From Akebia trifoliata (taxonomy: Eukaryota > Streptophyta > Magnoliopsida > Ranunculales > Lardizabalaceae), in NCBI GenBank assembly GCA_017979445.1, contig CM030706.1:33125330-33189329 (forward strand): a stretch of 64,000 bases of DNA. The letters run 5' to 3'. Within the stretch, counting starts at the first letter, position 1. Each line of letters begins with the position of its first letter. Shown piece after piece: positions 1,083-43,904 of the stretch. The notes under the pieces are model-generated. The model did not search any database, was not told the origin of the DNA, and saw only the letters and a program-made list of their open reading frames with translations. The translations under genes were made by a program, and so were the position numbers.

Positions 1083-1610
1083 ATGAACAAAGTTGCGCCC
1101 TATCGTCGTCTCCTCCTAACCAACTTTCACACCACAAACCATTCCCATAGAGAGTCGAAGACCATTACATTTCGATCAACCAAATTCTCATTCCCTCTCT
1201 TCACTTCCAAACCTCTCCACACTTCAATCTTCAAACACAAAGAAATTCTTCTTCTTCACTCACTCCATCCATCAAACTCTCCTCACAAACCCTTAAAACC
1301 CTTCTCCTTCTTCTTCTTCTTATTCTCCCCTGAATCAATCCTTCTCTTTGCCTACTTCTCCATCTTTCTCTCTCTTCGTCTTCTCTCCTCTCTCCTCCCT
1401 CCCAATTTTCCTCAACAATGGCATCGTTTCATGGTTTCTTCTTCTGAAGCAGATGCGAGATCATCCAATTTTCCTCCGCATTTGTGGAAAGTTGTTGTGG
1501 CTTACGAAGATCGTCGATTCTTCAAACATTGTGGAATCGATCCGATTGGGATCGCTCGTGCTTTGTTATTGTTTCCTGGTGGAGGAGGCGGAAGTACCAT
1601 AACACAACAG
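1083..1610 (+). CDS. GT51 gene exon 1: transit-like region, membrane anchor, first catalytic motif
   Basis: Codes for residues 1-176. The frame is open upstream of 1083 without another ATG, so 1083 is the first usable start. The C-terminal 40 residues carry the first two GT51 motifs. The exon ends exactly at CAG followed by the donor GTTAAT, phase 0. The serine- and phenylalanine-rich first half is weakly constrained, as expected of a targeting peptide and anchor. Confidence 0.88.
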
Positions 1611-4098
1611 GTTAATTAATTATGGATTTTTTTTAAATTTTTTTTTATTTTGTTGTCAAGTTGTTGGAAATTGGAATTTAGTTTTCAAATGTGCTGTTGA
1701 GCTGCAAATAATTGCTTTACTCTATGATTTGTCATTTGCAAAAATCATGTTAAAACTAGAAAGTGTTTGATGATTGTTCGCAGTGAGGTGTCACAACATG
1801 GTAACCAAATTGGAATTTGGTAGTTGTTTGGTGGGATCACTTCGATTAATCTGGATAAATTTGGGTAAGTTTAAGAAAAAATTCATGGAAATTTTGGGTG
1901 GATGGGTAGACCAAATAACAAAATTGGGGTGGTGCTATTTGCACGCACCTAAAATACTCAACCTACCCACTTAATGTCAAAGGTTGGTGTTAAGGGGCGC
2001 CCATATATTTAGCTTGGGTGTCCATTTTCATAATGGGCACCCACGTCTTATTTCCGACTTAATGAGTTTAGCAGGGGCACCCACAATTACACGGGCACCC
2101 TAACATTTTCAACGATTCTTCATCTTCTTCACCTCTTACACCACCACAACCACAACCACTGTGGGAGAGCACCGACATTGTTGCACCGTTGCACTTTCGA
2201 CAGCCTTCAAAACCATCAGTGAACACCCAAATCTTCAACTTTTTCACCTTCTTGACCCCATTTAATCAGCACTGCCATATCCATTGCACCACCCACGACC
2301 TGTAACCACCATTGGGTTAATTCGTTCATTGTTTTCTCTCTTTTGAATCCAAGATGAAATCCATTTGATTTCTAGTCTCTATAATTTTAGTTCTTTAATC
2401 ATCATCGGCCTAATCAATGAGGTTTGATTTCTAGGGTTTCAAAACCTATTGAAAAAATGATGTAGGACGTCTACGATTGTAGTTGGAGAGCCTTGAGTAA
2501 TTTCCTAATTGTAATAGGATTTATTTCTATTTTCTAGTTCTAGTAGGATTTCTATTTAACTTTAAGAAGTTTATATTTTCTCTAGTTTCTAATTTGTTTT
2601 CAAATTTTTATTTTTGTTTAAATTTGTTTTTGTTTTTTTAGGATATAATTAAAAGTGCATAGTAAGTGTCCAAATTAAGTTCTAATAGGATTAGAGAAAC
2701 AGTATCATATTATAGATAAATTAGAAAGTTATTTTTTAGTATTTTAGAAGGTTTCTAAGTTGTTAGGATAAAATTATCTATATAAGGAGCTTCAAAAATG
2801 AAATTTAATAAAATTCAAATATTTTCATACAATTTTCTTTTATCTCTTAGTTACTTTCTAATTCTTTGCTTTATCTTCTTTAAGTTATTGTTTGTTTATC
2901 AATTGAATCTATTGATTCAAATTGATTTTGTGTTCTATTGAATATAATCTCTTAATTCCTTTCGAATCTATTGATTCACATGCTTTTGCTACGTCAAAAT
3001 CCCTCTTTTTGTTCCCAAATTTCTACTTTTTTGGGACAAAAATGTGTTTGAGATCGATGGTCTAGGATTTCTAAGTTTCACCATCATCGAAATGGTGAAG
3101 CTTTTCACCGGAGAATGACGATTTTCAGTGGAAGTTATTAGAGTTTGGCAGCCGTCGAGGAAGAGAAGCACCGGATTTCGGTATGGGTGGAGGAAGGAAA
3201 GGGAGAAGAGAGTAGAATGCATAAAGTGTGGGTGCTCACATTTGGCCCCCAACAAAAATTAGGTATTTAAAAAAATAGTACATTTTACAATTACTCTTTG
3301 CACTCTCCATAACCCACCGATCAAAAAACCCATTATTTGATTAGTTGAATCAATGGAGATTAGGTTTTTTTTTTTCCAAGTTATCTTATTGGGCTGCTCT
3401 TCTTGCGCACACCTAAACGTCTCATTGTATCCACTTACTCGCTATACCCACCTAAAAAATTAAAGTTCTCAATGCACACACCTAATTCACTTAATTTTAA
3501 TTGGTTTTCATTGCACCACTTAATAGCCTACCGAACCCATTTATTCTTCTTTCTATATCTCATTTCTTCTTTTTCTTTACTTCTAAAAAGGTTTCAATGA
3601 GGATTTTAAGCTTTGATCTTAATTATTTTTTTAACTCTTAATACCTCCAATCGAGTCGAAGCCATTCATATGAGAAATTTTGTTTAAAACTTTCAGTTCG
3701 GTATGTTAGTACCGAATCATTTTTGCTACGTTCGGTAGGTACCTACCTACCAATCCTATAAGTAGAGATTCAGGATTGACATATCGAACTAAAGATTCAA
3801 ATGAGAAGGTTCTGTTCAGTAGGTACCTACCGAGTCTGTTTTGTATTGTTCGGTAGGCACCAACTGAATTTGCTAAAACAAGTTCAGTCTAAACCTACCG
3901 AACAAAATCTGTCAAAAATCTTTGAATTTTTTAATTCAAAATCACCGTTTTGGAGGTTTTAATAATGATTTTTCCATCTTCCTTGGTGACTAAATGCAAA
4001 ATAAATAAGATAACTTGAAAAAAAACCTAAAACCTAAAACCTAATCTCTATCGATTCAACTTCTCACAAAATTCAAAAGGAGATAAACATGGAGAGAG

Positions 4099-4149
<51 letters not shown>

Positions 4150-5478
4150 AAAAGAAGAAGAAGAAGAACAAGATTATGGTGGGTGCAATGAGCACATAGA
4201 AAAGGGTAAAATTGTAAATTACCCTTTTAAAATATTTTTCACTTAAAATGGGTACAATCAGCCACTTTGGTGTGTGCAATAGTACGTCCTTATCTTATTT
4301 CATTGTAATTTCTCTTATTTTTTTGCATTTAATCACCAAGGAAGATGGAAAAACACTATTAAAACCTCCAAAATGACTATTTTAGATCGAATAACTCGAA
4401 GATTTTTGACAGATTTTGTTAAGTAGGTTAAGACTGAATATGTCTTAGTTGATTCAGTATATACTTACCGAACATTACAAAATAGATTTGGTAGGTACCT
4501 ACCAAACAGTACAAATTTTATTTGATGAGTACCTACCCAACGTTACAAAATCGATTCAGTAGGTACCTATCAAACAGTACAAAACAGATTCGGCAGATAT
4601 CTAACGAACAAAACTTTCTCATGTAACTCTTTGAGTTTAGTATGCCAGTACTGAATCTCTTTGTATGAGATCGGTAGGCACCCACCAAATATTGCAAAAA
4701 TGATTCAATATTGGTATTATATCATACCGAAAATTTTGCACATTATTGATCTCATATGAATGACTTCATTCGATTAAATTTTGAGGTGTTAGGGTAAAAA
4801 AGGTGTAAGATCCAAGCTTAAAATCCTCGTTGAAACTTTTTTAGATGTAAAGAAGAAAAAAAAGAATGTGAGAGAAAGACAAAGAAGCAAATGGTGAAGA
4901 AGGAGAAAAAAAGAGGGAAATATACATGCATACATATACATATATGTATATATACGTGCGGACTACACATACTAACCATCCTACACGTGTACAACAGTTA
5001 AATATAGCCACTTTATGTGGAGGGGCATATAGAGACACCTTCGAATCTCTATATACCCCTCCACATAAAATGGCTATATTTAACTGTTGTACACGTGCAG
5101 GGTGGCTGTATATATATATATATATATATAGGGGAATGCTAACGTCCAAGACCTCATAAGGACGTTAGTATTGTCCGTCACATTTTATTTCTAGTAATAC
5201 CACTATCTTTTTGTCTTTTAATGAAAAAGATAGGGGTATGTTGGTATAATAAATGCTTGTTTGCATTAATTGCCAAAATATTTATTGCAAACAAAACATT
5301 AAATCTAAGGAATAAATTCCCTTAGCATTTATTATGTAAAAGATAAGCATTTATTATGCAAAAAAACTAATATACCCTTGTATTTTCACTAAAAGACAAA
5401 ATAGATAAGGTTATTATAGAAAAAAATGTGATGGAGAATGCTAACGTCCCCATTAGGTTTTGGACATTATCATTCCCC

Positions 5479-5520
<42 letters not shown>

Positions 5521-8500
5521 GAGGTTCGGTAGGTTCTTGGGTGAATGCATGAGAACACAAAAAAAAAATGTTAGATTAGGAGTGTGTAAAGAGAACCAAT
5601 TTTTTAGGTGTGTGCAATGAGTAAGTGGGTACATTGAGCATTTTAGGTGTGCAAATAGTGCCACCCAAAAACTTGAAGGGGATATATGAATTCAAAAAAT
5701 TGTCGATTTTTTGAAATATTCTTTTTGGCTCATCTGATTGATTGCCTATTTTTTGTTTGGCCCCTTTAAGGCGATTCCGCCCCCCCCTCGAAATTTGGTG
5801 AATTTTTTGATGGGGGGTCACATCAGTAGGTTCCACTGTTATAGAGTTTTTGTTGTTGTTGTGAAGCTTTCAAACACCTGCGCCAATGTCCACTGGAACA
5901 CTATTGATCTTCTTTTCCATATTCCACATGGTTGCATATTTTACTTCAATGATTTATATGTGCATTTTCATGTTTACTTTATCATATCTTATAGTTTCAA
6001 AGAAAATTTCCTTTATATTTCTATTATTTCCACATATTTTCAGATTGGCCGAAATTAAAAATGAAACCAAGATTTACTACCTTGCTTAAGGGAAATTGTC
6101 GAAAACCCTGTTTGAATGATGGTGAAGAAGTTGTTATCAGTGATAGTTTTAGTTATTTGTTTATTTTTCTGTCATGTCCTTTTTCGTCTTTTCCTATTTA
6201 TCATGTAATATATAAATAGGAATGAAGAAATAATAAACATACTTTCCTGGAATTTCTTCTTTTCTTGTCTAAATCCTAGATCAAATTCTACATGGTATCA
6301 GAGTTCTGGTGACGACCGGAAGATCGAAGAGAGTTCCGAAGCAGGTAGAGTGTTCAATCTCCAACCTTTTGCAGCCCTAGGGCTGTCGCTAGCCACACAA
6401 CAACCTTCTAGGTGTTGCTACAAGTCAGTAGCCATCACCTAGGGTTGCCATTAGCCACTTCTCCTAAGGGCTATTGCACCATTTCAACCACCTCCTAGGG
6501 TTGTCTCTAGTCACCTAAGGTTGCCTCCAGTCACCTAGGGTTTTGTAGATCTCCATCGGGTCATTCTTCAAACTTGATTGGCTATTACAACCTATGTCAT
6601 GGTTGTAATAGCCTTCAAGGTAAGTCACATGTTTTTTTTTTCCTTTCATCAAGAATGCAGAAATAGATTCTAATCTTATGTTATACGTGTTTCGTTAGTG
6701 TTTCTGAGTAATCTGGATTTTCTATGAGTAGTTTATTCCTCTAAAGTCATGTCAGAAGTAACTTCAGGATAGTCTACCAATAGTAGGTTTGGATCCTCGC
6801 AAATCAGAGATGAAAATCCAAATCTCCAAATCACCATAGTCAAACTCAATGGTACAAACTACTTGGAGTGGGCTCAGTTTGCAAAATAGCCATCCATGGA
6901 AGATGGAAGGCGGGCTATTTGAATGGGAAAGAGAAACAACTTAATATCTCAGATCCTAAGTACGAACAATGAGACGTTGAGAACATTTTGGTTATGTCTT
7001 GATTGTTGCATTCAATGCAACCTCATATTAGTAGAGAATATCTTTTCTCGGAGACGACACAAAAAATTTGGGAATCAGTGACTTAAATTTATTCTCAGGA
7101 TTAGAATAGTGCTAGAATCTATCATTTGGAACATAATATTTTACATCTCAAACAGTGGGAAAAGACATTGTTAGGCTATTTTTTTTAATTGCGCAGCATG
7201 TGGGAAGAGTTCAATCACTATTTACCATTCAATTAGGAAAGTCTTAAAGATTGTGCACAACTAACATGTTGAGACATGTACATTTCAGTTTCTCGCCGGT
7301 TTGAATCCCAAGTATGAGATGGTTAGAGTTCAAATTTTGAACATAGATCCTTTACCTCCTTTGAATATTATGTACTTTGATGTTCAAAGTGAGGAGAGTC
7401 AACGCTTGATTATGGGATATCTGGATATTCTTGTGAGTGATAAATCTATAATGGCAGTTAGTAGACATGGAGAAGGACACACTTCAAGAGTAAAGAAGTT
7501 TGATAAATCCACCAGGGCACCCAATAGTAGAGAGAAGCTGAAGTGTGACAATTGTGGCAAATTTGGACATATTTGAGCAAAGTGTTGGGACTTGATAGGT
7601 CGTCTTGATTCATTTCAGCCTAAGTATTGATCTTCCTCAGCTCATCATCCTTCTAATGCTGACATACTAGATGATTCCCCGAGTTCTAAGATACCACCTT
7701 CTACGGTACATGCATCATTCTCCCAGGAAGATATTATTCGTCTGAGAGCTCTATTGGATGGTTCCATTGCGACCTCTTCCTTTGCACACATAGGTACTCT
7801 TACCATTGTTCATTATGTTTCCTCATCTCAATCCAACTCTTGGATTCTTGATTTAGGAGCTTTAGACAACATGACAGGTATGTCTTCTTTCTTTCAGTCC
7901 TATAACCCTTGTTCAGGCAAAGACAAAGTTTGTCTAACTGATAGTTCCTTATCATCCATAGCCGGTAAAGGAACCATCAAGGTTCTTCATAGTTTCTCTT
8001 TGTCTAATGTGTTATATGTTCCTAATCTCATTACTAATCTTGTGTCTGTTAGTTGTATTACAAAATATCTAAATTGTAGTGTTACCTTTTTTTCTTTTCA
8101 TTGTGTCTTTCAGGATTTGGCAACAAAGAGGATGATTGGTAGTGATCGTGAAACAAATGGTTTGTACCTTCTCAACATCCCAATGTCTTAGCACATTCCA
8201 CATGCTCATGCTTCTTAGAGTAATATTAGGGTAGTCAATAAATCCCAAATAATGACATATTCGATTGGGTTATGTTTCTTTTTAGTAGCGTGTGTTTTCT
8301 TCTTTGTTTCAGTCTATGTCATTGTTAGAGTTACAATGTGAAGTTTGTCAATTGTCCAAGCACTGTTGTTTTTATCCAATAAGTTTAAATAAAAAAAGTT
8401 CATCTTTATTTTCTCTTGTGCATTCTGATGTTTGGAGTCTATCCCATGTTACTTCTTTATTGAGTTTTTGCTATTTTGTTACCTTTGTGGATGACTATAG

Positions 8501-11500
8501 CAGACGTACGTGGGTTTACTTAATGAAAACAAAAGTTGATCTCTGTTCCATATTCCAAGATTTTCATGCGATGGTTCTAAATCAATTTAGAGTGAAGATC
8601 AAAATCCTTCGCTTAGATGAGGGATGAGAGTATTCCTATGGGGGCTTGAAATAATTATGTGCTACTCAAGGGATAAAACAACAAACTTCACGTGTTTCCA
8701 CACCCCAACAAAATGGTAATGCCGAAATAAAAATTCGTCATTTGTTGGAATTAGGAAGAGCTTTGTTGATTGGGATGAACGTTCCTAAGCATTTCTGGTC
8801 TGAAGTCATTTTTACTGCATGTTACATTATCAATCGAACTCCCTCTAGTGTCTTGAACTTCCAACCTTCTCTGTTGTTTCTTTCTCCTGATCGTCATTTA
8901 TTTTATGTGATTCTACGAATCTTTGGGTGTGTCTGTTTTATTCATATCTTCAGTCATGTTTATACTAACCTTTGACCCTAAGGCATTGAAGTGTGTGTTT
9001 CTTGGTTATTCTAATTCTCAGAAGGGTTATAAATGTTATCATCCACCTATCCGTCGTCGATTTGTCACAATGGACATCATATTCTTTGAAAATCAGTGTT
9101 ACTTTCCTAGCCTTGATCGATAATCTCTTTAGGGGAGTTGTTCCTTCCATCCACTAATCATTAGTCCCTTTTGGAGTCATTTTTTCCAGTTTCACTACCT
9201 ATGGCAATTATTTCAGAATTTGTTGTGGAAGTTATGCAACCAACCAAGTCAGTGCCTACTCTTTTTGGACACACTTACACCAAAAAGGGAAAACAAGCCA
9301 TTGTTGATTGATCATGTCACACCACTAAGGAGCCAAATCATGTTCTCATGACCACTTTACATCGTTTCTTCATATTCTAATATTCCCATTGCTCATTGGA
9401 AAGGTAAATGTACTTGTACTTCGCATCCTATTTCTCAGTTTGTTTCCTATTATAACGTGTTTCCATCTTATTGCTCTTTTGTTGTTTTTATGTTTTCTGT
9501 TTCCATCCCATCCAGTGTGAGAGAAGTTCTTTTCAATCCCAAGTAGAAACATGCTATGTGCGAAGAATCGAGAGCTTTAGCAAAGAATGATACTTGGGAG
9601 TTACCACAGGGGAAGAAATTTGTTGGCTGCAAGTGGGTGTTCACAGTGAAGTACAAGTCAGATGGATCAATTGACAGGCACAAGGCTAGGTTGGTTGACA
9701 AGGGATATGCCCAAACTTACGATATCGACTATCAAGAAATCTTTGTCTTGGTAGCTAAATGAATTCTATTTGTGTCCTCTCCTTGGCAGCAAATTTCTCT
9801 TGGGAGCTTCACCAACTAGATATGAAGAACACCTTCTTACATAGTGATTTGCAAGAAGAAGTATACATAGATACTCTCCCAGGAGTTCTTTTTTCCAATG
9901 TTGATGGGAAAATGTGTCGTCTAAAGAAGTTTTTATATGGTCTCAAATAATCCTGCCAGCGTGGTTTGAGCGGTTCCACTCTGTTTTGCAGGATGTGAGT
10001 TGCAAACAATGTTAGGTTGATCACACACTGTTTGTCAAACATAGTGAACCTCAGACTACAATTCTTATTGTGTATGATGATGATATTGTCATTATAGAAA
10101 ATTGTTCTACTGAGATTCAAATTTTGAAGCGTCTTCTTGGAAATCTCTTTGAAGTAAAAGACCTTGGACTTTTGAAATATATTTTGGGTATTGGGATAAC
10201 TTGATCGAAGACATGCATTTTTATCTCACAGCACAAGTATGTGTTAGATTTGCTCTAGGAGGTTGGTAAACTTAGGACTAAATCAGTTGATACTCCAATT
10301 AAGCCAAATTACCGATTGAGTGAAAGTGATGGTGAAGCTCTTGAAGATATCTGTCATTATCCACATTTGATTGGTAAACTCATCTACTTATCTCTTACGT
10401 GACCAAATATTGACTATGCAGTAAGTGTTGTTAGCCAATTCATGCATGCCCCTCGTACAACACATTTTGATGCTGCCCTACACATCCCTCGGTATTTGAA
10501 AGGATGCCCGGGGAAAGGTTTATTATTCCGTTCACATGGTCACATGCTTGTGGAAGCATGGACAGATTTTGATTGGGCGGGTTCTATTACCAATCATTGT
10601 TCGACTTCTGGGTATTGCATTGTGGTGGGTGGTAATTTGGTAACTTGACACAGTAAGAAATTGTTTGTGGTTGCTCTCTTTATGTTGAAGCTGAGTTCAG
10701 AGCCATGACTTTTGGCAAATGTGTATTCTTTTGGTTACGACTATTACTTCTTGAGCCAAGTTGTTCACCTCCTACTCATTTTCAATTGTACTATGATAAC
10801 AAGGTTGCCATTAACATAACTCATAATCGAGTTCAACATGATTGCGCCAGCACATTGAGGTTGACTGACAATTTCATCATGAAGAAAGTTACTTCCGGTG
10901 ACATCTGCACCATCTTTGTTCTTACAACACAGCAGTTAGCCGATGTCCTCACTAAAGCCTTGGGTCATGCCAGTTTTGATAATCTTATAAGCAAGCTGGG
11001 CATGTGTGATATTTTTGTACTAGCTTGAAGGGGAGTGTTATCAGTGATAGTTATTTTTTATTTATGTTTATGTCACGTCCGTTTTCATTTTTTCCTATTT
11101 ATCATGTAACTTATAAATAGGAATGAAGAAAGAATAAACACAACTTTTTTGGAATTTATTCTTATCTTCTCTAAATCTTAGATCAATTTCTACATAGTAT
11201 CCTATCCTTTCCATCCTAAGATCTGGTACTTGATTGCAAGTTCAATAGTCAATAGTAGGCTTCAATTTAGTGACTTCAATGGTACAATAGCATAAACCAC
11301 AAGCGGAGTCCATCAATATCAATAAGTTGAGTTCATGCTGAGCCATGGTTAGTTGTGCCCGTCCCTATCCAAAATAGGTTTGATAATTCTGATTTAAGCC
11401 TGAGCTGATTGATATTTAGAACAGTCTCGGGTTAGTTATCTCAACTCAATTTTATTTTTTTCAATATTCAATTCTAGGATTGGTCCTAAAGTAAGATATT

Positions 11501-17500: not shown

Positions 17501-20500
17501 CCTTTACCACAACCACGGCTACGATTCCCTGATCCAAGGGCACGGGAGTCGGAGGAACTCGAGTTGGCAGCTAAAGCCATCTGATCTGTAGCTGGAGCAG
17601 AAAGAATGTCAGGGACCTGAGTCTAAGGAGGAGCAATACGGCGACGACGTTCATCACTGTCAATGGTTGCAAATATCTCAAATATAGAAGGTAAAGGAGT
17701 GGTGTTGAGGATATGTGTTCGAAGTACCTTAAACTCTGGATGTAGTCCCATAAGAAATTGGTAAGTTTGACATCGAAAATCCGTTTAACAACATAATCGA
17801 CTGTATCTGAAGACAATTCAGCCATAAACTCAGTGAGAAAGTTCTTTCCAACGTGACTGAAGGTATCCAAAGTAATTGACTACACTTTAAGTCCCTTGGG
17901 TAGCCTGGGCAATGTCTCGATAAAGTTCATTAATCCTCGAGTCATTCCTGGAATGTGCGTATGTTTGAGTAAGCTCTGACCATAAAGATGGAATTGTCTC
18001 ATGGTACATGAACGTGGTATAGATGCGTTGTTCCATGGAGTTAAACAACCACCCAAGGACAGTGCAGTTGTCAATCTACCATGATTCAAATTTAGGATCA
18101 GTTAGAGGTGGTTTAGTAACAGTCTCGAAGAGCCATCCAGATTTTTCTCTATTCCCTAGATAGAGACGCAGAGATCGGGACAATGACTGAAAGTTCTGAC
18201 CATCGAGAAGAGCAGTGGTAATACGTTGATCTGAGTTAGACCCAAGGACTGTAGCGGAAGTTGTAATTCCTTGTTTCGAAGACATTGCTTTTGTTTGAAG
18301 GGATACCTGAAGAAGAAATTGTTTAATTTTTTTTTAGGGCACCCTTGGTGCAATCGCAAAGTTGTTACAATACAAAGACAATAGTTTTACTGTTGTTGGT
18401 AACCTACACAATAAATAGAAGCAGCCCAAATAGTAGGGCAATGTCCAAACTGCTATCGAACTCTGTTAACAACCTGCTGTTATAATCGCAAGACTCAAAG
18501 AATGGTCCTACTTGTGTTGTACTCCTTCACAAGGTCCAACAGACCTATCGTAGGATCAAAATGAGACAGCTACTGCTGTTGCCTGGTTCCAGTGATGTCG
18601 CAGGGCTCACAAGCAGATACTGATGTCGCAGGGTCAATCAAAGGCTCAAGCGTTATTGCAGGACCAAAATGAGGTAGCCACTCCTGTCGTCTGGTTGCAG
18701 TGATGTCGCAGGGTTCCTTCACAAGTAGATACTACTATTGATGGGTGCAAACAAACGGTACAGTGCTGTCACAAGGTCAATCAGAAGCTCTAGTTTGTTG
18801 CAGGGTTCAATAATAGGGGCTGCAGCACCAAAAACAGCCACTATTGTGGCTCAAGTGCTATCTTACACCAAAAAAAGAGCAACTGCTGTTACGTAGAGAC
18901 AAACCTTAGCATAGGGTAGAAGTAGAAGTAGAAGCACATCGCATTATTGCAGCATGTGATAAAACGAAAAAAGAAAATTGAAAGACCCCCCCCAAAGATT
19001 GAATGAGATTGACTTTAAGTTAGGGTTTAGTGAGTAAAGAGAATAAGTAGAGGGAGGAAAAAATTCATTAGCTTGATACTAAGAAGAATTTGAGAAGAAT
19101 AATGTCTAGTCTCTTTGTGAGAGTTTGACAGGAATTTATATTAATTAAAAAAGTCAAATTATAGAAAAGCCCTTACAAATAAGAATTAAATAAAAGACTA
19201 TCACTACTAAGTAATTATGACTAAAATAACAACTAACTAAATTATTTCCAATAGGTAGAACACACAAACCTGGAGTTTATATTAAAAATTTGGTTCTAGG
19301 GTGAAATCCTAAGAACTAAGAGTAATGAAGAATCTCTATGTCGAGTAAAACAGACTAAAAACTTCAACCTAGGTTTGAGATGGATGGAAATCAATTGCAA
19401 GCACTAAAATTAAGAACCAATATCGGGCTCTTATGCTCAAAAAAACAAAGAAAGGGAAGAAAAGTCTCTTCTTTTATTAATCAATCTTCAAAAAAACTTA
19501 CTTTACTGAATTTGTTTATTGGAGCCCTTGATATAGGTAACTCCTTCATAACAACTTAGAAACCTTTTAAAACATTAAAAAGTAACTTCTTAATCTATCT
19601 ATAACATATTACTAACCTTCTAATCCTATTAGAACTCAATTTGGACAACTAAAAGAACTTCTAATTGTAACCTAAAGAATAAAAACGAATTTTAAACATA
19701 AAATAAATTAGAAACTAACTAGGAAAAGAAACTTTCTAAAATTGAAATAGAATCTAACTAGGACTACTTAAGCAACTTAGAAAATGGAAACTTAATAAAA
19801 GAAAGAGTCCTAAGAGAAGTTGGACAATGTCTTGTGGGCTGGTCAAAGATTGGATTGAGTTGACTCGGTCAAACAAATTTGACTCGGTCAATGTTGTGGA
19901 TTTCTTTCTTCGATGCTTCTTAACTAGATCATAAGCATTGAGATCAGTGTCGACAAACTTATTTGCATGAAAGATCACTAAGCTGGCTTGGAAAATGATG
20001 GCTCTATGTGTTAGGTTATTAATGAACTCTAAATCTTTCTTTAACATGATTTGTTCATCAGGTATAGCGTGGTTTGGTGCTCAGATATCTGTTCGGTTCA
20101 ACAATAAATAGAGTATGCAAAGAAGAAGACGACGAAAGGGAAGATTGAGAAATGTTAGCATTGGGAAATGTCATTTATATCTTCTTGCACCCCTTCTCAA
20201 TTAAATTAAAAAATATAGTTGAGGAATATTATTTAGATCCTCTTGTATCCCCTTTAAACTTTTGTCAAATAAAGTAAGAGGGGTTTAGGGTCACAATAAG
20301 AAGTTATGCACATTCTTATTGAAAGTCGTCCCCATATGTTCATATACTACGATATATTGTTGAAGCTGCTTACACCTTCCAAAATTTTGGAAGAACACAA
20401 GAGCATGGAAGAGCGCATGAAGTATCATGGGCCGACAAACATGTCAAGATCCACAAGAACACTGGAGCATGGAAGAGCGCATAAAGTACCATGGGCCAAC

Positions 20501-22490
20501 AAACATGTCAAGATCCACAATACATGAGGTTACAATTCCATCACTTGTGGTGATATTCATTTAGCGTTATGCGATTCCGATATGATTCAACATTTGAGTA
20601 GGTTGTGAACCAAATTACGATCTTCTCATGGGATTACTGTATTAGGAAATTCCAACAAGTATTAAGTTTCATATTTGAGTTTAGGTTTCCGTCATAAGTG
20701 CTTTTTGCATTGCATTGCTGGTCCCAAGATCTCTGGGATGAGGATTCATTTCATTTAAGAATTGAATGGATGAACAAGATTTGTTCAAGTCCAGCTTGCC
20801 CGTCAAAAGAGAATGATTTTTTCAGCTGACCCTAGATATTTGGGTTAAGCCTTTGCTTGTGATGATTATTTGAGTTTTAATTTTGGAAGTTGAGTCCTTC
20901 ATTTGTCAGTTTCCTAACATCAGTTGTATTGTTAGTTTAGTTACTTTTTGTAGAGTCCATATTAGGTTTAGAAGGTTTAAATCTATTCTTTAAAAAATAG
21001 CATGGCATTCTAGTTGTAGATGCTCACCTTTTTTTCTTATTTCATTTTGTTGGCTTGTTTGATGATCCTTTATCAATACTGAAATATAACCGCAGTATTG
21101 GCTTTCTAATTACATTTGGCAGCTTGTGAAGAACACCTTTTTAAAGAGTGAGCAAACCTTCTCAAGAAAAGCTGTTGAGATGGTATTGGCGTTGATATTG
21201 GAGAGGACAATGACTAAAAGGAAAATTATAAATTCCTATTTGAGTAAGGTAAGTGATGTTTTTTCTCTCTTTCTTGATAAGTATCAATAATATGCTGTAT
21301 TAAAATATGAATGACACAAGCATAGGGAAAAACCGTTTCCCAGGAAAAGTAATTAGACATTGTAAGATGCCTATCCAATAGTACCACAACTATTGGCTAA
21401 ATCTTCGATAGGACATACTCTCGCTAATAATCTTCCTTCTTGGTATATTTTAATTCTTTCAAATTAGACGACCATTCTATCAAATGAAATCTGATAATCT
21501 TACAAACATTTGTTAACATCTACTTATAAAAATATAAAAATAAAAACCTTTGTTAACATCTGACTAGGTCATCAAAGATCAATTTGTTGTACCCTTTGAA
21601 AACATCCCTACAAAGAGCATGAGGAGAATGTACCAAAGGATTTGCCCTAATGCCGAACAGCTTGTTTGACCTAAAAGAGAGAATATTTTCAATATCTCTA
21701 GGAAATATACATTAATGTTGAACAATGATTTAAAAAAGCTCCACATCTCTATAACAAACTTACAGTGAACAAAGCTCCACACATTCAAAACATCCATTCC
21801 AACATAAGTTATTTTTTTTCTCTAGACTTTTTAGATTGGCAACGCAAGCTATGTTCTTTGCATTCTATAAGTGCATTCAATGCTCTTCTTTGTTTTACAT
21901 TTTGCTTTCTATTTTTTTATCCCTCAATGGAATGAATATTTAATCAATGAGTCGTGTGTCTTTACCTTCATTTTTTTCTAACTGGTTTGAAGATCAGTTA
22001 GTTAACAGGCTCACTTAGGCACTGAATAGGAAACATTGCAAGACATTCTAAGCCAGCTGACCATGGTTGATATTTATGCACCTGTCTTAGGTTTAGGGGG
22101 GAGTATCATAATATAAGTTTTCTATTTAAATATATAAGTTGGTGAGGGTAACATAGTTATTTTCTCTTTTTTCCCCATACATACACCTTCACTTAAGTTG
22201 ATTGGGGTTAATTTTAGTAATGCTTCTGTTTTCTACTCTTAATTGGAGTGAAGTGGAGAGGGAAATGATTGACAGCTCTCTTCTCTTTCCCAGAATCTCT
22301 CTTTCTCTTCTTTTTCATTGGGAGTTTGCCTAACGAGAAATTGGAAATCCATGGCCTTAACTGATAGAGAGAGGATTCTGTGGAAGCTTGTTCCCTTTGC
22401 TGTTTGCTGGGGCTTATGTAAGGAAAGGACCGGGAGAATCTTCTATGGGAAGGAGTAGTCCTTGTAGGAAGTTATCTTTTGTATTTTGGG

Positions 22491-22533
<43 letters not shown>

Positions 22534-25500
22534 TGGACTAGACAATTTTTTGACTTTAGAGGAATCTTTTTTGAGGATCTTCCCTTTAGATGAGCTTTGG
22601 TTTGTAAAGAGAGAAGGTAACTTTTGTTTTGTCCTTTTGAGGATATCTCAGCCTCTTGTCAATAAATTTGATTTTATTTATAAAAAAAAATAAAAAATTG
22701 CCTTGATACTGTATCAGTTATGTCTTTTTTGTTGAATGGATTTTTATTGAAAATGTCTTAGTTTATAGAAATTTAAAAATCTTGGAACTTTCAAATGGGC
22801 ATATTATTCAATTTGATCCAAACATAGTATGGTTTTACCTTTTCAATTTTCTTGACCAAGTTCTTTCCTGAACTAGTACTAAATTTAGGGGGTAGGCTGA
22901 CACCATTTATGGGGATGTCTAACAGGAAATATTGTGATACAGATTTATTGGGGACATGGTATCTATGGAATTGAGTCAGCATCCGAATTCTATTTTGGCA
23001 AGCATCCTTCACTTCTTAGTTTGGGAGAATGTGCAATGCTTGCTGGGATCATACCTGCTCCCGAGCTTCGGTCACCATTTAGGGACCCAAGCAGGTCTGT
23101 ATGATTTACTGAAAGAATTTTATTTTGGAGCTTTCTATGGTTTCTGCAAACGGGTTTCCTCCTAAAAAATCTTACTTTTGACTTTCTTAAAGAGGGAAGA
23201 CCTCCCAAGCAAGAGCATTGAGGAGAATGGTGGATGCTGGGCTTCTTGATAGCGAGACAGCAGTTTTGATTGTGAATCAGCCTCTTCGTTTACGTGTTGA
23301 TGGTCCAGAACACCCAAATAGACTGTTATACTCTTCGTATTTCTCGGTGGAGGTATACTAAAGTCCTTTCTTCTTGATGTTTGACATTTGCAAATGTCAT
23401 TGTTAGTGCTTGAAAAGTATTTTGGAGTTCATTATCTTGCATGGCTTAATATTAATATATCTAGCCTTTTCCTTTTTTCTGGGTTTAATTACCTTTTTTG
23501 TATGGCTATAAGTGTCTGTTTGAGTACAGTGAGATGAATCTTCAGGGTAAGCCATCTAAACTGGATTTTTATTTGTGTGCTTGTGGCACTCTCCTCTCCC
23601 CAGAAGTACATTATAAGCATACTTATGAGTTTGATGACATCTACAATCTGATGGTAGTGGGCACACCCCTAACCAAAAGCAATAGTGAACATAGAGATAA
23701 GTTGGAGACTCCTTAACCGTGGATGATCACTAATGCAACGAATAGCTTTAGAACTGTGGAGAGGTTTTTGGGCTTTCCACTCCTCGAGATGTGTATCATT
23801 CTTTGATGTTTGAGCTCAGTCTTTTCTTTCAAGTGGACGAACTTCAACTTTCTTCCGCTCCCCTGATGCCTCCTTGGTTGGTAGAGAACACTAAGATGGG
23901 AAAGGTGGTCGACCTTGGTCCTTAACCTTTTCAGTTAATGGTGGCCGTTTGACTTCCTCAACCTAGGACCTCTGCCTACTGCTCCAGACATGCTCGAAAG
24001 CCTTTTGGTCTTCCACATCTCGGGTTGCGAATTGCTGTCTATTTCGGTTGATGACCCAAGGTGTCTCTTCTCTCATGTTTTGGCGTTATGACCAACCTCT
24101 CTGGCTAAAGGCTTCGACTTTCACTCTTGGTCTTTGACTTTTCTCTCAAGTTGTGTCTTGATTCACTTCTAGCTTGCTGTTGGAGTTACTAGGACTCTCC
24201 TTCTGCTGGACGACTCGGTTCTCTTTCTTTGCTGGTGTTAGGTCAGACGTCTCCCTATATTAGAAGACTCGGCTTTGACCTATGTTCTTCTGCCTCCTCC
24301 TTTGGCTTGTTGATCCCTTTTCATTTCTTGCTGACTTGATTGTTCCCTTTTTTTGGTCGGCCTACTAACCTGGTTGAATCATTCTAATATCAGGCTTTAT
24401 TTCTTCTTCAAGATGGCGGTTTGGGATCTCCCTGCTCTTTTATGGCTTCTTGAATGATAGATGGCAAGAAGGTTGAAGGATGGGGCCCTGGTGTGGTGCC
24501 TGCCAATGTTCTTCCAACGATTTTGTTAGTACACAGATAAAAAATGATGAATGGGGAATAAGGTGTTGCAGAATGGTCTCTCTCACATCAAGCCTTTCTC
24601 TTCCTTTTTGTTTCTGCCAATTAGTTTTTTTTCACCCATCGACCTCCTCCTTTGCTGATGTTTTTTTTCGTTTTTATAGATGAGTCCTTTTGGACAGATG
24701 TCACCACACAACTGACTTAGATAATCTACTTGTTGGGAATGCACTTGAGTGCTTTGGGAGATGAACTTATCACTTGTCAAAGATTTTTTGCTTGATATGT
24801 AAGTGTTGCAGGTTACTTAAATGTGAGAAAATATCTCTTAACACATGGTGCCCCATCTGTATGATTTAGATCTTTTTTGTACTTATCTTGGATGTGCTCG
24901 GTGTTTCATGTTAACTTGGGATTGTTTCCCGTGCTGTGGGTCTAGTTGAGTGTGAGTTTGTATCTTGAGATCGGTTATGTGTTTATGAATGAAATGATTT
25001 ACTTTTAAGAAGGAACTCTTAATTCTCTCTGGTTTTGTTTTGAACTGACTCAGTTGGTTCCTTTTAGCTCGACTATAGCTTGTTGTTCTATTCTTATCTA
25101 CTTAAAAGCTCTTTCTTGCTTTGCTATCTGGATGGTCTCTATTAGAACCGTGCTCTGTACTCCTATGTGTTTTTGCTTTTTTAAGAATCGATCTGAAATT
25201 TGAAGTGGGCCCCTCTTATTTTTACTATGACATGTGTCTCTATTGTGTGGTGTGACAAATATCGACTTCACAAGAACCATGGATTTACACCCAACAGAGA
25301 ACGATTACTCCATTAGACTCTCCAACGGGTGCTAAAACCTAGCTCACTACAATTCCTCAAGTAATGGTCAGGAAGACGTATATCCCCCATCTTACTAAGG
25401 GTTTAAATGATAAACCCTAAAACTCTAGGGCAATCCTTTGTAGTAGATTGTCGACAGTCTTCCCAATCATCTAATCTCTTAAGACTCAACAAAGTATCCC

Positions 25501-27125
25501 CATGACAAAGAAATCCTAGGAAAATGATCCTTTAAAAGTCTTCATTTCCAGATCAACTTGACAGGCCTTCAAATGATGGATAGTGCGTCATTTCTATGTG
25601 GGATGAGGCTTTGATGATGATGATGACGATGATGATTCCTCTGTTGTTACTCATAAAAAAAAATGATGATGATTTCTCTATAGGGTCTTGGTCAGGAATC
25701 AGGATGTAGATGATGGGTCGAAGTTCTACCTGTGTGAGACCTTCCCACGTCTTATACTTTATTTAGCTAATGTGACAATATTTGGTGTGTGCATTAGCAT
25801 GTAAGAGAGTGCCATGAATTTCCTTGTCCACATTACATTCTACTCGTAATGTTACTATTTTTGTATACTGACTTATGGGTTGTGATTTTAGGTTTGTTTT
25901 ACCATTCTCCTAAAGTTTCAACAATGTCTCCATAATTTGTATGAAAAATATATGATCTACACATCATCATCATCAAAGCCCACCCAAACTTCTAAGTGAT
26001 CCAAGTATTTCCACCAAATATTCTGTTTTGGGGTGACCAAAATGGACAACAAAATTGAAAGCTAATACCTTGAATGACCTCTTGTATAGGATTTCGAGTT
26101 TCATCATTCTTTTGGTAATCACCAATCATGGTACAAATTTTCACTCTTACAGTCATTTTTTTTATGGTTTGATGCACTATTTCCTAAGTAGGTCTTTTTT
26201 TCTACTTTTTTTTTTAAGATATTTGATTGATTTCATCATTTATCTATTAATGCACATGCATATCCTATTAGCTAGCAATGTTATTACTTAAAACTTTTTT
26301 TTTTGTGGATAAATATACTTAAAAAACTATCTGCCAAAAAGCATTAATCTCTTCACTGGCTTCACATTGAGTATGCTTAATAACTGAGGGCATTCGTGGG
26401 TAAGTACATGTGCATCAAAATCACGAGGATTCAGGCCTCATGTGGGTGAGATCTAGCAGTTATGCTTATTTTCCATATTATTGAGAGCATGGTTAGAAAT
26501 CCCATACCATACTTTACTAGTATGTAATGTATCGTGACTTCAAAATATGATTTAATTAATTTTGTTATGGTAAATCTATTATAATAGGTAATATAATTGT
26601 ATTAAAAATCATATTTTTTATGTTATTTATGTATCAAACATAGTATACCAATTTTAAACTTCAGTAGGTAAAGTATATGATTATATTAGAATAATTTCCT
26701 CCTTATTTATAATGTGAGTAGTGGCTTCTATACTTCTAAGTTGTAACTGGAAATTTTTTGGTGATGTAAATGACAAATATACTTGAGTGGATGATTTTAA
26801 CTGCGGTATTGGTAACTTGACTTCCTTCAATTTAGTTTAAAAGTGAGACATCTTTATGAGTGGAAGTGATTTCCAGGAATCACATAATAACTCATACTTG
26901 TTATTAGAATCCCAGATTTGAATGTTCCTCAGCAATATGGTTAATTTGGTTTTGTAGGAACTAAGGGATTCTCGCAAACAAGGTTGCTGGAACTCGACTG
27001 TCGTGGATATATGGGACTGGGAAAGGGAAAGTAAAATATGGGAAGTAAGAGAAAACATGGAAAGATGGGCACAAAGGGTTCAGAAAAGCTCTGTTGCGGT
27101 CAATTCTTTGATAAAATCAACTTGA
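1083..27125 (+). CDS. Plant peptidoglycan glycosyltransferase (GT51, monofunctional), five exons
   Basis: Predicted exons are 1083-1610, 21123-21248, 22943-23094, 23193-23352 and 26958-27125, giving a 377-residue protein. All introns are GT-AG, with phases 0, 0, 2 and 0 that keep the frame. GT51 enzymes polymerise lipid II into glycan strands. All family motifs are visible: EDRRFFKHCGIDPIGIARA with catalytic Glu142, GGSTITQQ joined across intron 1 to LVKN, RKAVE with the second catalytic Glu195, GHGIYGIESASEFYFGK, and a LGECAMLAGIIPAP segment. The N-terminus (about residues 1-70) is rich in Ser, Thr and basic residues, like a plastid transit peptide. A hydrophobic anchor follows at about 75-107. 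There is no transpeptidase domain, so it resembles bacterial MtgA in layout; the plastid location is inferred. ATG 1083 is the first in-frame Met. Exons 1-4 are firm; exon 5 and the C-terminal 55 residues are a prediction from frame and splice signal only. Confidence 0.88.
1611..2457. other. Start of GT51 intron 1, no gene seen
   Basis: Intronic AT-rich sequence. 1980-2110 contains several GGGCACCC and GGGCGCCC phrases in opposite orientations, suggesting a decayed foldback element. No frame carries recognisable coding motifs. Confidence 0.5.
2458..2996 (+). mobile_element. Solo LTR, same family as the nested gypsy-derived element at 12916-15191
   Basis: It starts TGATGTAGGAC and ends GCTACGTCA, the same termini as the LTRs at 12916-13443 and 14665-15191 read on the minus strand. 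It shares CTATATAAGGAGCT and the repeated ATTGAATCTATTGATTCA phrases. Flanks are AAAAA and AAAAT, a near 5-bp target duplication. No internal region is attached, so the rest was probably lost by LTR-LTR recombination. It lies in GT51 intron 1. Confidence 0.8.
3555..4865. repeat. Large inverted repeat (hairpin) with palindromic tandem repeats
   Basis: The left arm (about 3555-4012) and right arm (about 4287-4865) are inverted copies. For example, GAGGATTTTAAGCTT at 3599 mirrors AAGCTTAAAATCCTC at 4814, and CCATCTTCCTTGGTGA at 3973 mirrors TCACCAAGGAAGATGG at 4331. Both arms carry the palindrome GGTAGGTACCTACC several times; in the right arm it sits in a 34-bp tandem unit (starts at 4470, 4504, 4538, 4572, 4606). 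The spacer holds a (GA)n microsatellite at about 4091-4146. It could be one long foldback transposon or two inverted copies of a smaller one. Confidence 0.75.
4975..5106. repeat. Near-perfect hairpin, stem about 60 bp, loop about 10 bp
   Basis: The left arm from CCTACACGTG to CATATAGAGA pairs with TCTCTATATACC through CACGTGCAGG with about three mismatches over 56 positions. It is flanked by TA-rich runs, including a (TA)n tract at 5109-5130. It explains the mirrored ORFs seen on both strands here. It is a MITE or a small-RNA-producing inverted repeat. Confidence 0.8.
5131..5478. mobile_element. MITE with GGGGAATG termini
   Basis: A 348-bp element starting GGGGAATGCTAACGTCC and ending GGACATTATCATTCCCC, inserted in TA-rich DNA (flanks TATATA and ATATAT). 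No coding capacity. A partial relative is found at about 53886-54016. Confidence 0.75.
5479..6131. other. Spacer with GATA/GA microsatellite
   Basis: (GATA)n followed by (GA)n lies at about 5484-5521. The phrase GGTGTGTGCAATGAG at about 5607 recurs in inverted form near 3470, so this looks like repeat debris. No coding motif is visible up to the LTR at 6132. Confidence 0.5.
6132..6292 (+). repeat. 5' LTR of the + strand copia element
   Basis: Begins TGTTATCAG and ends TTCTACA, with a TATA-like TATAAATAGG at about 6211. The PBS matching initiator-Met tRNA starts at 6293. Confidence 0.88.
6760..11028 (+). pseudogene. Broken copia gag-pol
   Basis: Coding relic split by stops and frameshifts. 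The gag CCHC knuckle CDNCGKFGHI is at 7544-7573, followed at once by a stop. A protease remnant WILDLGALDNMTG (normally DSGA..H) is at 7839-7877, with both Gly/His-type positions altered. The integrase core with FVDDYSRRTWVY is at 8300-8975. RT segments with KARLVDKGYAQ and the YGLK-type region lie at 9556-10200, and the RNase H/C-terminal part with ADVLTKAL at 10440-11028. The polyprotein cannot be translated through, so the element cannot move by itself. Confidence 0.88.
11036..11194 (+). repeat. 3' LTR of the + strand copia element
   Basis: Same termini as the 5' copy, with about 24 differences and indels over 160 bp. It is preceded by a polypurine tract. Confidence 0.88.
11195..11577. other. 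Spacer between the two copia elements
   Basis: Single-copy-looking intronic DNA. Nothing recognisable in any frame. Confidence 0.5.
11578..11738 (-). repeat. 3' LTR of the minus-strand copia element
   Basis: On + it runs AGAAGAATAATGTC to TTTTCAATA and pairs with the copy at 19093-19253, with about 12 differences. Confidence 0.85.
12916..13443 (-). repeat. 3' LTR of the nested gypsy-derived element
   Basis: Starts (on -) TGATGTAGGAC and ends CTACGTCA; 528 bp. Confidence 0.9.
13518..14626 (-). pseudogene. Gypsy polyprotein remnants inside the nested element
   Basis: At 14360-14626 a protease-type region reads IIDNESSEN, where active gypsy proteases have a DSG-like triad. At 13518-13800 there is the integrase C-terminal signature RRFNKYEKGDLVMVYPSKYR followed by LKKINNNVYVKILP. 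The RT, RNase H and integrase catalytic regions expected between these are absent, so this is an internally deleted, non-autonomous copy. Confidence 0.75.
14665..15191 (-). repeat. 5' LTR of the nested gypsy-derived element
   Basis: Same termini as the partner LTR; 527 bp. The PBS lies directly next to it at 14651-14664. Confidence 0.9.
19093..19253 (-). repeat. 5' LTR of the minus-strand copia element
   Basis: Runs AGAAGAATAATGTC to TTTCCAATA. An extra GAAGAATTTGAG stretch separates it from the primer-binding site, so the exact inner edge is uncertain by about 12 bp. Confidence 0.85.
19525..19795 (-). repeat. Diverged LTR fragment related to the nested gypsy-derived family
   Basis: It shares ordered phrases with the LTR at 12916-13443: GGTAACTCCTTCATAACAACTT, CTAATCCTATTAGAACTCAA and AAATTAGAAACTAAC. 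It is clearly older and truncated, and lies in GT51 intron 1. Confidence 0.6.
19796..21122. other. Rest of GT51 intron 1, with a 64-bp tandem duplication
   Basis: GAGCATGGAAGAGCGCAT starts at 20401 and again at 20465, giving two 64-bp units that differ at a few positions. They produce an open frame at 20306-20527 without family resemblance. Nothing else is recognisable before exon 2. Confidence 0.5.
21123..21248 (+). CDS. GT51 gene exon 2: motif 3
   Basis: Forty-two codons between acceptor TTTGGCAG and the consensus donor AAG/GTAAGT. It carries LVKN, completing the QQLVKN motif begun in exon 1, and RKAVEMVLALILERTMTKRK, which contains the second catalytic Glu and the helix usual in GT51 enzymes. 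It ends in SYLSK, which joins directly to IYWGHG of exon 3. It is too short and internal to be seen as a free-standing ORF. Confidence 0.88.
21560..21800 (-). mobile_element. L1-type LINE fragment
   Basis: The minus-strand frame from 21797 reads NVWSFVHCKFVIEMWSFFKS and continues into ALGQILWYILL. This pattern resembles the zinc-finger/RT tail (zf-RVT region) of plant L1 polyproteins. Truncated and with no flanking duplication found. It lies in GT51 intron 2. Confidence 0.45.
22330..22695 (+). mobile_element. L1-type LINE 3' fragment with A-rich tail
   Basis: Frame fragments such as LFPFAVCWGL and the following Lys/Arg-rich phrase resemble the C-terminal end of plant L1 ORF2. The sequence ends in an A-rich tail at 22678-22695. 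A (TA)n microsatellite (22496-22527) interrupts it. It lies in GT51 intron 2. Confidence 0.5.
22943..23094 (+). CDS. GT51 gene exon 3: motifs 4 and 5
   Basis: Starts after acceptor GATACAG with IYWGHGIYGIESASEFYFGK (motif 4) and runs into LLSLGECAMLAGIIPAP (motif 5), ending in phase 2 before donor GTCTGT. Reading frame, motif spacing and splice sites all agree with the bacterial family. The downstream intron is only 98 bp. Confidence 0.88.
23193..23352 (+). CDS. GT51 gene exon 4: end of glycosyltransferase domain
   Basis: Begins after TTCTTAAAG. One base completes the Arg codon of exon 3, giving DPSRGKTSQARALRRMVDAG, the Arg-rich helix that commonly closes the GT51 fold. It continues with a plant-specific stretch ending YSSYFSVE before donor GTATAC (phase 0). 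Confidence 0.8.
23353..26957. other. GT51 intron 4
   Basis: 3.6 kb, with an unusually C/T-rich stretch at 23750-24400. (GAT)n tails of RTE/SINE type occur at about 25610-25640 and, in inverse orientation, at about 25962-25980. No frame gives a recognisable product; the frame at 23498-23716 has no flanking splice context that fits the GT51 protein. Confidence 0.4.
26958..27125 (+). CDS. GT51 gene exon 5 (predicted terminal exon)
   Basis: After acceptor TTTTGTAG the phase-0 frame is open for 55 codons and ends at TGA. It is Trp/Glu-rich (DIWDWERESKIWEVRENMER). The phase matches exon 4 exactly. No motif of known function is visible, and an additional small exon between 23352 and 26958 cannot be excluded. 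Confidence 0.55.
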   Translation, partial: ELRDSRKQGCWNSTVVDIWDWERESKIWEVRENMERWAQRVQKSSVAVNSLIKST

Positions 27126-31975: not shown

Positions 31976-32480
31976 CTATATGAAACCCTAGTTGAAACTT
32001 ATGTAAATTCAAAGAAGAAGAATGAGAAAGAGGAACAGGCGAATGAGAGAGAGGGGGAGGAGGAGACATAATCAGATTCGGTAGAGGGTGAAAATAGTAA
32101 AATTAAAATTATTGTCTTTCACCACTTTTAGGTTGGTGATAGCAGTAAAGTGGATGGAGATAGCACCCCCTTCAATTAATTCTAAGAAAGGGGAAAAGCC
32201 AATAAATCCTAATCCTAGTCACCATTCCAACTTTATTTATTTATTTATTTATTTTGTTTATCTCTCTACTTTGTACTCTTTTTAAGTAATGAAGAAGAGA
32301 GAGTGGTAATGAAAATTTCTTAAAATAAGGAGAGTAGAGAGTAAGTTGGTGGCAAGTGCATATACACATATTACAAATATTATGATTTATGCATGATTAA
32401 TTCTTTTATAATTTTAAATAGACAATCTAAAATATTACTTTTAAAATATGAAAAAATGATTTTATAAGTAATATAATAAA

Positions 32481-43247: not shown

Positions 43248-43904
43248 ATGGCGCAAGTGAAGAGATCTACTGGAGTAGTGAAATGGTTCAATGGGCTGAA
43301 GGGTTTCGGATTCATCACTCCAGACGATGGTACCGAAGATCTCTTCGTCCATCAGACTTCCATACGATCAGATGGTTTCAGAACCCTTTCGGAGGGTGAA
43401 CCAGTAGAATTCGAGACCGACCATGGTGATGATGGTCGGACGAAAGCCGTCGATGTGGTCGGACAGAATGGATCATACATGTCCGGCGGTGGTAGTGGTG
43501 GTGGTGGTCGTAGAGGATTCTCCGGTGGAAGAGGCAGAGGTGGCGGTTACGGCAGTTATGACAGTTATGGTAGAGGAGGTAGGAGTGGTGGAGGGAGGAT
43601 TGGTGGCAGCGGAGGTTATGGTGGTGGTGGTGGTGGCGGCGCTTGTTATAATTGTGGAAAAAGTGGTCATTTAGCGAGGGATTGCTACCAAGGAAGTGGT
43701 GGTGGGGGTGAAGGGAGATTTAGTGGTGGTGGGGGTGGAGGGAGATTTAGTGGTGGTGGTGGGGGTGAAGGGAGATTTAGTGGTGGTGGTGGTAGGGGTG
43801 GAGGGAGATTTGGTGCTAGTGGTGGTGGTGGTGGTGGTGGTTGTTATAATTGTGGAGAACAGGGGCATTTTGCGAGGGAATGTCCGAATAGCGATCAGAA
43901 ATGA
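43248..43904 (+). CDS. GRP2: Glycine-rich cold-shock-domain protein with two CCHC zinc knuckles
   Basis: An intronless 218-residue protein. Residues about 6-72 form a cold-shock domain with the RNP1 motif KGFGFI (18-23) and RNP2-type DLFVHQ (31-36). A Gly/Arg/Tyr-rich linker follows, then CCHC knuckle 1 (C133, C136, H141, C146), a repeated [10 protein letters not shown] stretch, and knuckle 2 (C199, C202, H207, C212). This is the layout of the Arabidopsis GRP2/CSP family: nucleic-acid chaperones that melt RNA structure and support cold and stress responses in nucleus and cytoplasm. ATG 43248 (GGGTAATGGCG) begins the canonical N-terminus before STGVVKWFN. The Gly-rich part is encoded by a short tandem repeat, so its length may vary between alleles. 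Confidence 0.95.
43690..43845 (+). repeat. Coding minisatellite (GGRFSGGGG units)
   Basis: GGGAGATTTAGTGGTGGTGG recurs three times in frame, plus a variant GGGAGATTTGG, between the two zinc knuckles. Each unit encodes G-R-F-S/G-G-rich repeats. Confidence 0.75.

What the first reader, a model, noticed from the sequence alone, without database searches (positions are those of the whole stretch)
1083..27125. A seed-plant-style peptidoglycan glycosyltransferase (GT51) gene
Five exons join in phase into a 377-residue protein containing every GT51 motif, both catalytic Glu residues (142 and 195), a transit-like N-terminus and a hydrophobic anchor, but no transpeptidase. Peptidoglycan in plastids is established for mosses and glaucophytes. 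An intact lipid-II polymerase in a plant nuclear genome that keeps Ser/Thr-rich targeting sequence suggests residual plastid cell-wall synthesis, or reuse of the enzyme.
Basis: partly seen in the sequence, partly recalled or inferred. Interest (0 to 1): 0.9.

Follow-up and report, generated by a model that had tools for sequence, protein, structure and literature searches.

The report
Plastid-wall polymerase that lost its crosslinker
A flowering-plant nuclear genome carries an intact five-exon gene for a bacterial-type enzyme that is predicted to string together peptidoglycan (bacterial-wall) sugars at the chloroplast; by sequence comparison it comes from a two-headed enzyme whose crosslinking half was cut out of the middle while both ends were kept, and this type of flowering-plant gene was already known in print.

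Summary
In detail: five GT-AG exons (1083-27125, +) join into 377 aa with both GT51 Glu (142, 195), a membrane helix and no transpeptidase (TP). It is a plant gene: the tree puts it with Ranunculales, in one angiosperm clade nested among land-plant class A PBPs. It is not a first: transglycosylase-only angiosperm genes were reported in 2023 and 2025.

Not found in my paper searches is how it arose. The protein is no truncation: its last exon encodes a Trp-rich helix (WDWE..S..WE..E.M..W) that is the end of streptophyte class A PBPs, after the TP. The hairpin before the GT domain is gone too (0 of 92 GT-only rows, 20 of 20 class A rows). So two inner pieces were lost while anchor, GT and tail stayed. 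Ginkgo class A PBP against the whole 652-Mb genome hits these five exons and nothing else. Monocots have a second paralog that keeps both Glu but shows no tail, so tail and GT look separable.

MurB, C, D, E (with DNPR) and F are in the genome; MurA, MurJ (server silent), MraY, MurG and Ddl were not tested. Likely function: making uncrosslinked glycan strands in the plastid envelope; the tail's role is inferred.

The parts
1083..1610 (+). Exon 1: transit-like N-terminus, membrane helix (about aa 78-98, nt 1314-1376), first GT51 motif with E142 (nt 1506-1508), up to STITQQ
   Evidence: PF00912
21123..21248 (+). Exon 2: LVKN to YLSK, with RKAVE and second catalytic E195 (nt 21177-21179)
22943..23094 (+). 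Exon 3: IYWGHG to DPSR, GT51 core
23193..23352 (+). Exon 4: end of GT domain and start of linker (..YFSVE), aligned to Ginkgo class A PBP up to residue 382-383
23353..26957 (+). Intron 4: the place where the transpeptidase part would be encoded; no remnant seen
   Evidence: tblastn of ten class A PBPs
26958..27125 (+). Exon 5: old class A C-terminus; Trp-rich tail helix aa 339-366 (nt 27006-27089) and stop
1611..21122 (+). Intron 1, 19.5 kb, with retroelement fragments inside; position after STITQQ shared with Closterium

Best explanation
The gene encodes an intact single-headed peptidoglycan glycosyltransferase of the flowering-plant type, descended from the two-headed class A penicillin-binding protein of other land plants by loss of two inner pieces, and its product is predicted to enter plastids and would there polymerise lipid II into glycan strands that it cannot crosslink. 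Shown by sequence: gene structure, GT51 domain and both active-site Glu, descent, no transpeptidase (TP) found in the searched genome, no hairpin before the GT domain, and retention of the class A C-terminal tail. Inferred: plastid import; GT domain in the envelope space; catalysis; that the two lost pieces went together because the hairpin serves the GT-TP junction; that the tail is a docking helix. The first candidate partner is the plastid-division protein PDV2, because the moss PBP binds it according to a paper that I saw only as cited. Uncrosslinked strands would make a thin, permeable wall or a scaffold at division sites rather than a sacculus.
Against: No transcript, no localisation, no enzyme assay. 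MurA, MurJ, MraY, MurG and Ddl were not tested in this genome. In moss both PBP activities are said to be needed (Takahashi 2016, seen only as cited in PMC12681378), so a TP-less protein cannot do the moss job. The tail is absent from 27 of 92 GT-only rows, some of them broken models, some not. The tail helix is not simply amphipathic: 3423 of 5000 shuffles as high. The published click-labelling of Arabidopsis plastids, which lacks this gene set, suggests that labelling alone does not need this enzyme.
Confidence: 0.72

Rival explanations
1. Exapted enzyme: the gene is intact, but its product now acts on another lipid-linked sugar or serves as a non-catalytic envelope scaffold, as angiosperm MurE was repurposed for plastid transcription.
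For: MurE exaptation is published (passages); transpeptidase lost; moss phenotype needs both activities (as cited).
Against: Both catalytic Glu and the S-T-I-T-Q-Q and R-K motifs are kept in 30 or more of 32-33 rows; the genome keeps MurB, C, D, F, which many angiosperms have lost; its MurE keeps DNPR.
Confidence: 0.2
2. Relic on its way to a pseudogene: expressed weakly or not at all.
For: No transcript available; a 19.5-kb first intron with retroelement pieces; orchids and others show cut forms.
Against: No stop or frame break in 377 codons and all borders GT-AG; strong conservation of GT and tail against linker and N-terminus (0.713 and 0.559 against 0.248 and 0.203, in 33 rows picked for carrying the tail).
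Confidence: 0.06
3. The plant does have a transpeptidase, in exons or an assembly gap that the searches missed.
For: Genome searches go exon by exon; the database search admitted only proteins of about 453-1440 aa and lists 120 rows, many unnamed; van Baren 2016 mentions one Phytozome family with PF00905 but no PF00912.
Against: The same Ginkgo query found even the short tail exon, yet nothing of Ginkgo residues 383-843 at E <= 10; PF00905 none at E <= 1; none in window; published surveys found none in angiosperms.
Confidence: 0.05
4. Bacterial contamination or recent transfer from a bacterium.
For: GT51 is a bacterial family.
Against: Four introns, a 59.6-Mb contig, retroelements around, tree inside angiosperms, shared intron positions.
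Confidence: 0.01

Closest known systems
Angiosperm transglycosylase-only genes (Tran 2023 PMC9954125; MacLeod 2023 PMC10784329; Sugita 2025 PMC12681378; examples Citrus sinensis, Asparagus officinalis)
   Same: GT51 domain without transpeptidase, nuclear gene, homologs in the same clade
   Different: Another species, probably of Ranunculales; the kept class A tail and the lost hairpin are not mentioned in the passages that I read
Land-plant class A PBP (Physcomitrium PBP1A, Picea PBP)
   Same: Membrane anchor, GT domain, C-terminal Trp-rich tail
   Different: Transpeptidase (Ginkgo residues about 384-848) and pre-GT hairpin absent here
Bacterial monofunctional glycosyltransferases (S. aureus MGT, TIGR02070 MtgA)
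   Different: Tree shows separate origin from a class A PBP; extra C-terminal tail; TIGR02070 score 119.2 below its cut-off 182.65

Membership tests
GT51 peptidoglycan glycosyltransferase (PF00912) | PF00912 over curated cut-off | tested here: met
   176.8 bits, cut-off 27
GT51 peptidoglycan glycosyltransferase (PF00912) | Two catalytic Glu in motifs 1 and 3 | tested here: met
   E142 and E195; motif assignment recalled
GT51 peptidoglycan glycosyltransferase (PF00912) | Polymerises lipid II | not testable with these tools
   needs an enzyme assay
Class A PBP | Transpeptidase domain PF00905 in the same protein | tested here: not met
   so it is a derivative, not a class A PBP
Bacterial MtgA (TIGR02070) | Score over the equivalog cut-off | tested here: not met
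   119.2 against 182.65
Angiosperm transglycosylase-only PBP derivative | GT domain inside the angiosperm clade | tested here: met
   98/90*
Angiosperm transglycosylase-only PBP derivative | No transpeptidase in the genome | tested here: met
   with the limits of exon-wise search
Plastid protein | Transit peptide that works | not testable with these tools
   only composition: 1 acidic and 12 Ser/Thr in the first 45 aa; medians 1 and 9 in 77 relatives

The most novel reading that the evidence does not exclude
The Trp-rich C-terminal helix is an independent docking module, born in streptophytes (seen in Klebsormidium, Spirogloea and land plants; not seen in the Mesostigma, Chlorokybus, Micromonas and Cyanophora rows), that ties the peptidoglycan polymerase to the plastid-division or envelope machinery. 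Flowering plants threw away crosslinking but kept polymerase plus dock, and monocots later split the two roles between a docked and an undocked polymerase. Angiosperm plastid peptidoglycan would then be uncrosslinked strands laid at a chosen place.
Probability: 0.3. Interest if true: 0.8.

Novelty: new member of a known kind. Interest (0 to 1): 0.5.

Why it matters
Whether flowering-plant plastids make peptidoglycan is disputed. The excised-middle architecture suggests that crosslinking, and the hairpin with it, was given up while polymerase and a streptophyte-specific tail were kept from water lilies to eudicots. That predicts uncrosslinked strands and a tail-binding partner, both directly testable; the tail-less monocot paralog offers a natural control.

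Tried and rejected
Bacterial origin: rejected by tree and introns. My first thought that the tail was an angiosperm invention was rejected when it turned up after the TP in class A PBPs. TP remnant in intron 4 or elsewhere in the window: none (best match that is neither GT nor tail has E 0.23). Tail as a simple amphipathic helix: not supported. Closterium P0132 cannot date the tail, because its model ends in a repeat run. VIA-align left the tail untested: rows cover model residues 88-307. A first tree script built its tree after dropping 9 rows whose motif my pattern missed, and then stopped on an error; the tree was redone with BLAST-cropped rows, none missing. Another script stopped on an error and was completed in the next. 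In the script locus L012 was read in a wrong frame, so its stops mean nothing (one search gives it an open frame). Paper searches for a plant PBP tail or excision gave nothing of that kind; they cover only open-licence PMC papers. Chang 2024, Takahashi 2016 and Dowson 2024 are not held: I know them only as cited in PMC12681378. Papers seen, passages only: PMC4815162, PMC12681378, PMC9954125, PMC10784329, PMC9434261.

Full report
WHAT IS THERE. The only Pfam domain is PF00912, residues 122-281, 176.8 bits. E142 and E195 are the two GT51 glutamates; a hydrophobic stretch lies within 73-106; there is no transpeptidase. The best sequence match among solved structures is the A. aeolicus PBP1A GT domain (E 2.9e-39).

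THE GENE IS A PLANT GENE. The window lies on a 59.6-Mb contig of a 652.5-Mb genome. Of the first 95 listed homologs 84 are named as angiosperms, 9 have no name, and 2 are Ceratopteris and Closterium. In a GT-domain tree of 53 rows the 27 angiosperm rows (window included) form one side of a branch (98/90*); the window sits with Stephania, Coptis and Aquilegia (95/90*), so the plant is probably of the order Ranunculales, although Papaver, of the same order, falls elsewhere on a longer branch. The angiosperms are nested among land-plant class A PBPs (that group with Closterium 100/99*), and the 11 bacteria are apart (99/93*). Two relatives with unremoved introns confirm window introns 1 to 3 (Closterium P0087, Tetracentron P0026).

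IT IS NOT A FIRST. [quoted passage not shown] PMC10784329, which counts it as a PBP ortholog; PMC12681378). This locus adds one species.

WHAT THOSE PASSAGES DO NOT SAY: THE MIDDLE WAS CUT OUT. BLAST of the window protein on Ginkgo class A PBP (924 aa) gives two collinear pieces: 87-324 on 103-383, and 323-373 on 849-899. The second piece, encoded by exon 5, is a Trp-rich tail (W-DWE..S..WE..E.M..W). A profile built from 43 tails of GT-only proteins (picked by the pattern) finds 18 of 220 proteins outside the training set with E 4e-7 to 0.033, better than the best of 2200 shuffled proteins (0.37). All 18 are class A PBPs of streptophyte type: 13 named (among them Ginkgo, Cryptomeria, Selaginella, Diphasiastrum, Marchantia, Riccia, Ceratodon, Calypogeia, Adiantum, Klebsormidium and two rows that I take, from recall of their locus prefix, as Spirogloea) and 5 without source name. 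The tail is not seen in the Mesostigma, Chlorokybus, Micromonas (partial) and Cyanophora rows. Of 16 land-plant-type class A rows 15 have it; the exception is a partial Taxus model.

A SECOND PIECE WENT TOO. Class A PBPs have a hairpin-like motif ([IVL][YF]D..G.[VIL][IVL]) 37-55 residues before the catalytic ED: 20 of 20 plant and algal class A rows examined have it, 0 of 92 GT-only rows do (P0048, P0076 and P0087 set aside because they are not of the angiosperm GT-only kind or are unnamed). The spacing from the juxtamembrane RW to the ED is 27-30 residues in 64 of 64 GT-only rows that could be measured (28 of the 95 rows gave no measure, 3 are the rows set aside) and 67-79 in 15 of 15 measured class A rows (5 of 20 gave none). 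That the hairpin serves the GT-TP junction is my inference.

NO TRANSPEPTIDASE FOUND. PF00905 gives no match in the whole genome at E <= 1. Ginkgo class A PBP against the whole genome at E <= 10 gives exactly five matches, which are the five exons of this gene in order, tail included (E 0.0012), and nothing for the stretch in between. Ten class A PBPs against the window show no remnant in intron 4. A database search with the Taxus TP region names no angiosperm among its best 120, many of which are unnamed. Limits: genome searches go exon by exon; admits only a range of lengths.

CONSTRAINT AND SEPARABILITY. Mean pairwise identity in 33 angiosperm rows, all picked because they carry the tail, is 0.713 in GT, 0.559 in the tail, 0.248 in the linker and 0.203 in the N-terminus. 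Over the 92 GT-only rows the loose tail pattern is met by 65, the strict one by 46; many of the others are cut or misjoined models, not all. Monocots after Anthurium carry two paralogs: in the second (8 rows: two Dioscorea, Typha, Phoenix, Elaeis, Asparagus, Dendrobium, Vanilla; support 93/89, not starred) none shows the tail, yet 8 of 8 keep both Glu motifs. Some of these models are short (236-283 aa), so part of the absence may be annotation; the palm ones (345 and 347 aa) share a tail-less end. The tail is thus probably not needed to keep a GT domain, which speaks for a separate job. AlphaFold2 makes the tail one helix (329-357 in Nelumbo, block pLDDT 91-96 from residue 331) after a disordered linker; in the Ginkgo model the tail helix is less sure (44-78). 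It is not simply amphipathic.

PATHWAY. In the same genome: MurE on C12 (TIGR01085, 353 bits, cut-off 257) with a DNPR motif in a later open frame; MurF on C7 (first exon, TIGR01143 best, below the whole-protein cut-off); MurD on C6 (several exons with TGTNGK, EVSSFQL, DSKATN; the match runs over stops, as across an intron); MurB C-domain on C3 twice and on the small contig C556; MurC as three collinear pieces on C10, none over the whole-protein cut-off, one running over stops. MurA and MurJ searches did not complete; MraY, MurG and Ddl were not tried. PF00912 occurs only here.

MECHANISM. Shown: intact gene, descent, two excisions, retained tail, five precursor enzymes. Inferred: plastid import, envelope-space GT domain, lipid II polymerisation into uncrosslinked strands, tail as docking helix (PDV2 is the lead, because the moss PBP is said to bind it; seen only as cited in PMC12681378). 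Main rival: exaptation to another substrate or a scaffold role.

Noticed in passing
window 7754-8191 (+), 13518-13958 (-), 15597-17133 (-): Retroelement fragments (Pol_BBD, SH3_Tf2-1 below cut-off, SH3_retrovirus, gag_pre-integrs) inside the 19.5-kb first intron. Described only.
   Followed up: partly
window 43248-43904 (+): Intact 218-aa open frame with a cold-shock domain and CCHC zinc knuckles, glycine-rich: a plant cold-shock protein.
   Followed up: partly
window 59108-60266 (+): 246-aa open frame with a weak C2H2 zinc finger (below cut-off), overlapping an 89-bp tandem array of 6 copies.
   Followed up: no
window 33000-34000: Strongly G-rich strand (GC skew 0.52 over 32001-34000) in a low-complexity, G-rich and C-poor stretch; not identified.
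   Followed up: no
Ginkgo P0128 residues 408-534: The class A PBP model has two very long helices (408-476, 483-534), coiled-coil-like, inserted at the start of the transpeptidase part; not pursued.
   Followed up: no
L010, L011, L012 (C3 and C556 of the window's genome): MurB C-domain occurs three times with nearly equal scores, twice on C3 about 0.48 Mb apart on opposite strands: recent duplication or assembly artefact.
   Followed up: no
monocot relatives P0057, P0064, P0066, P0067, P0071, P0082, P0083, P0086: A monocot GT51 duplication after Anthurium, one copy of which shows no C-terminal tail; the orchid rows lack it in both copies.
   Followed up: partly
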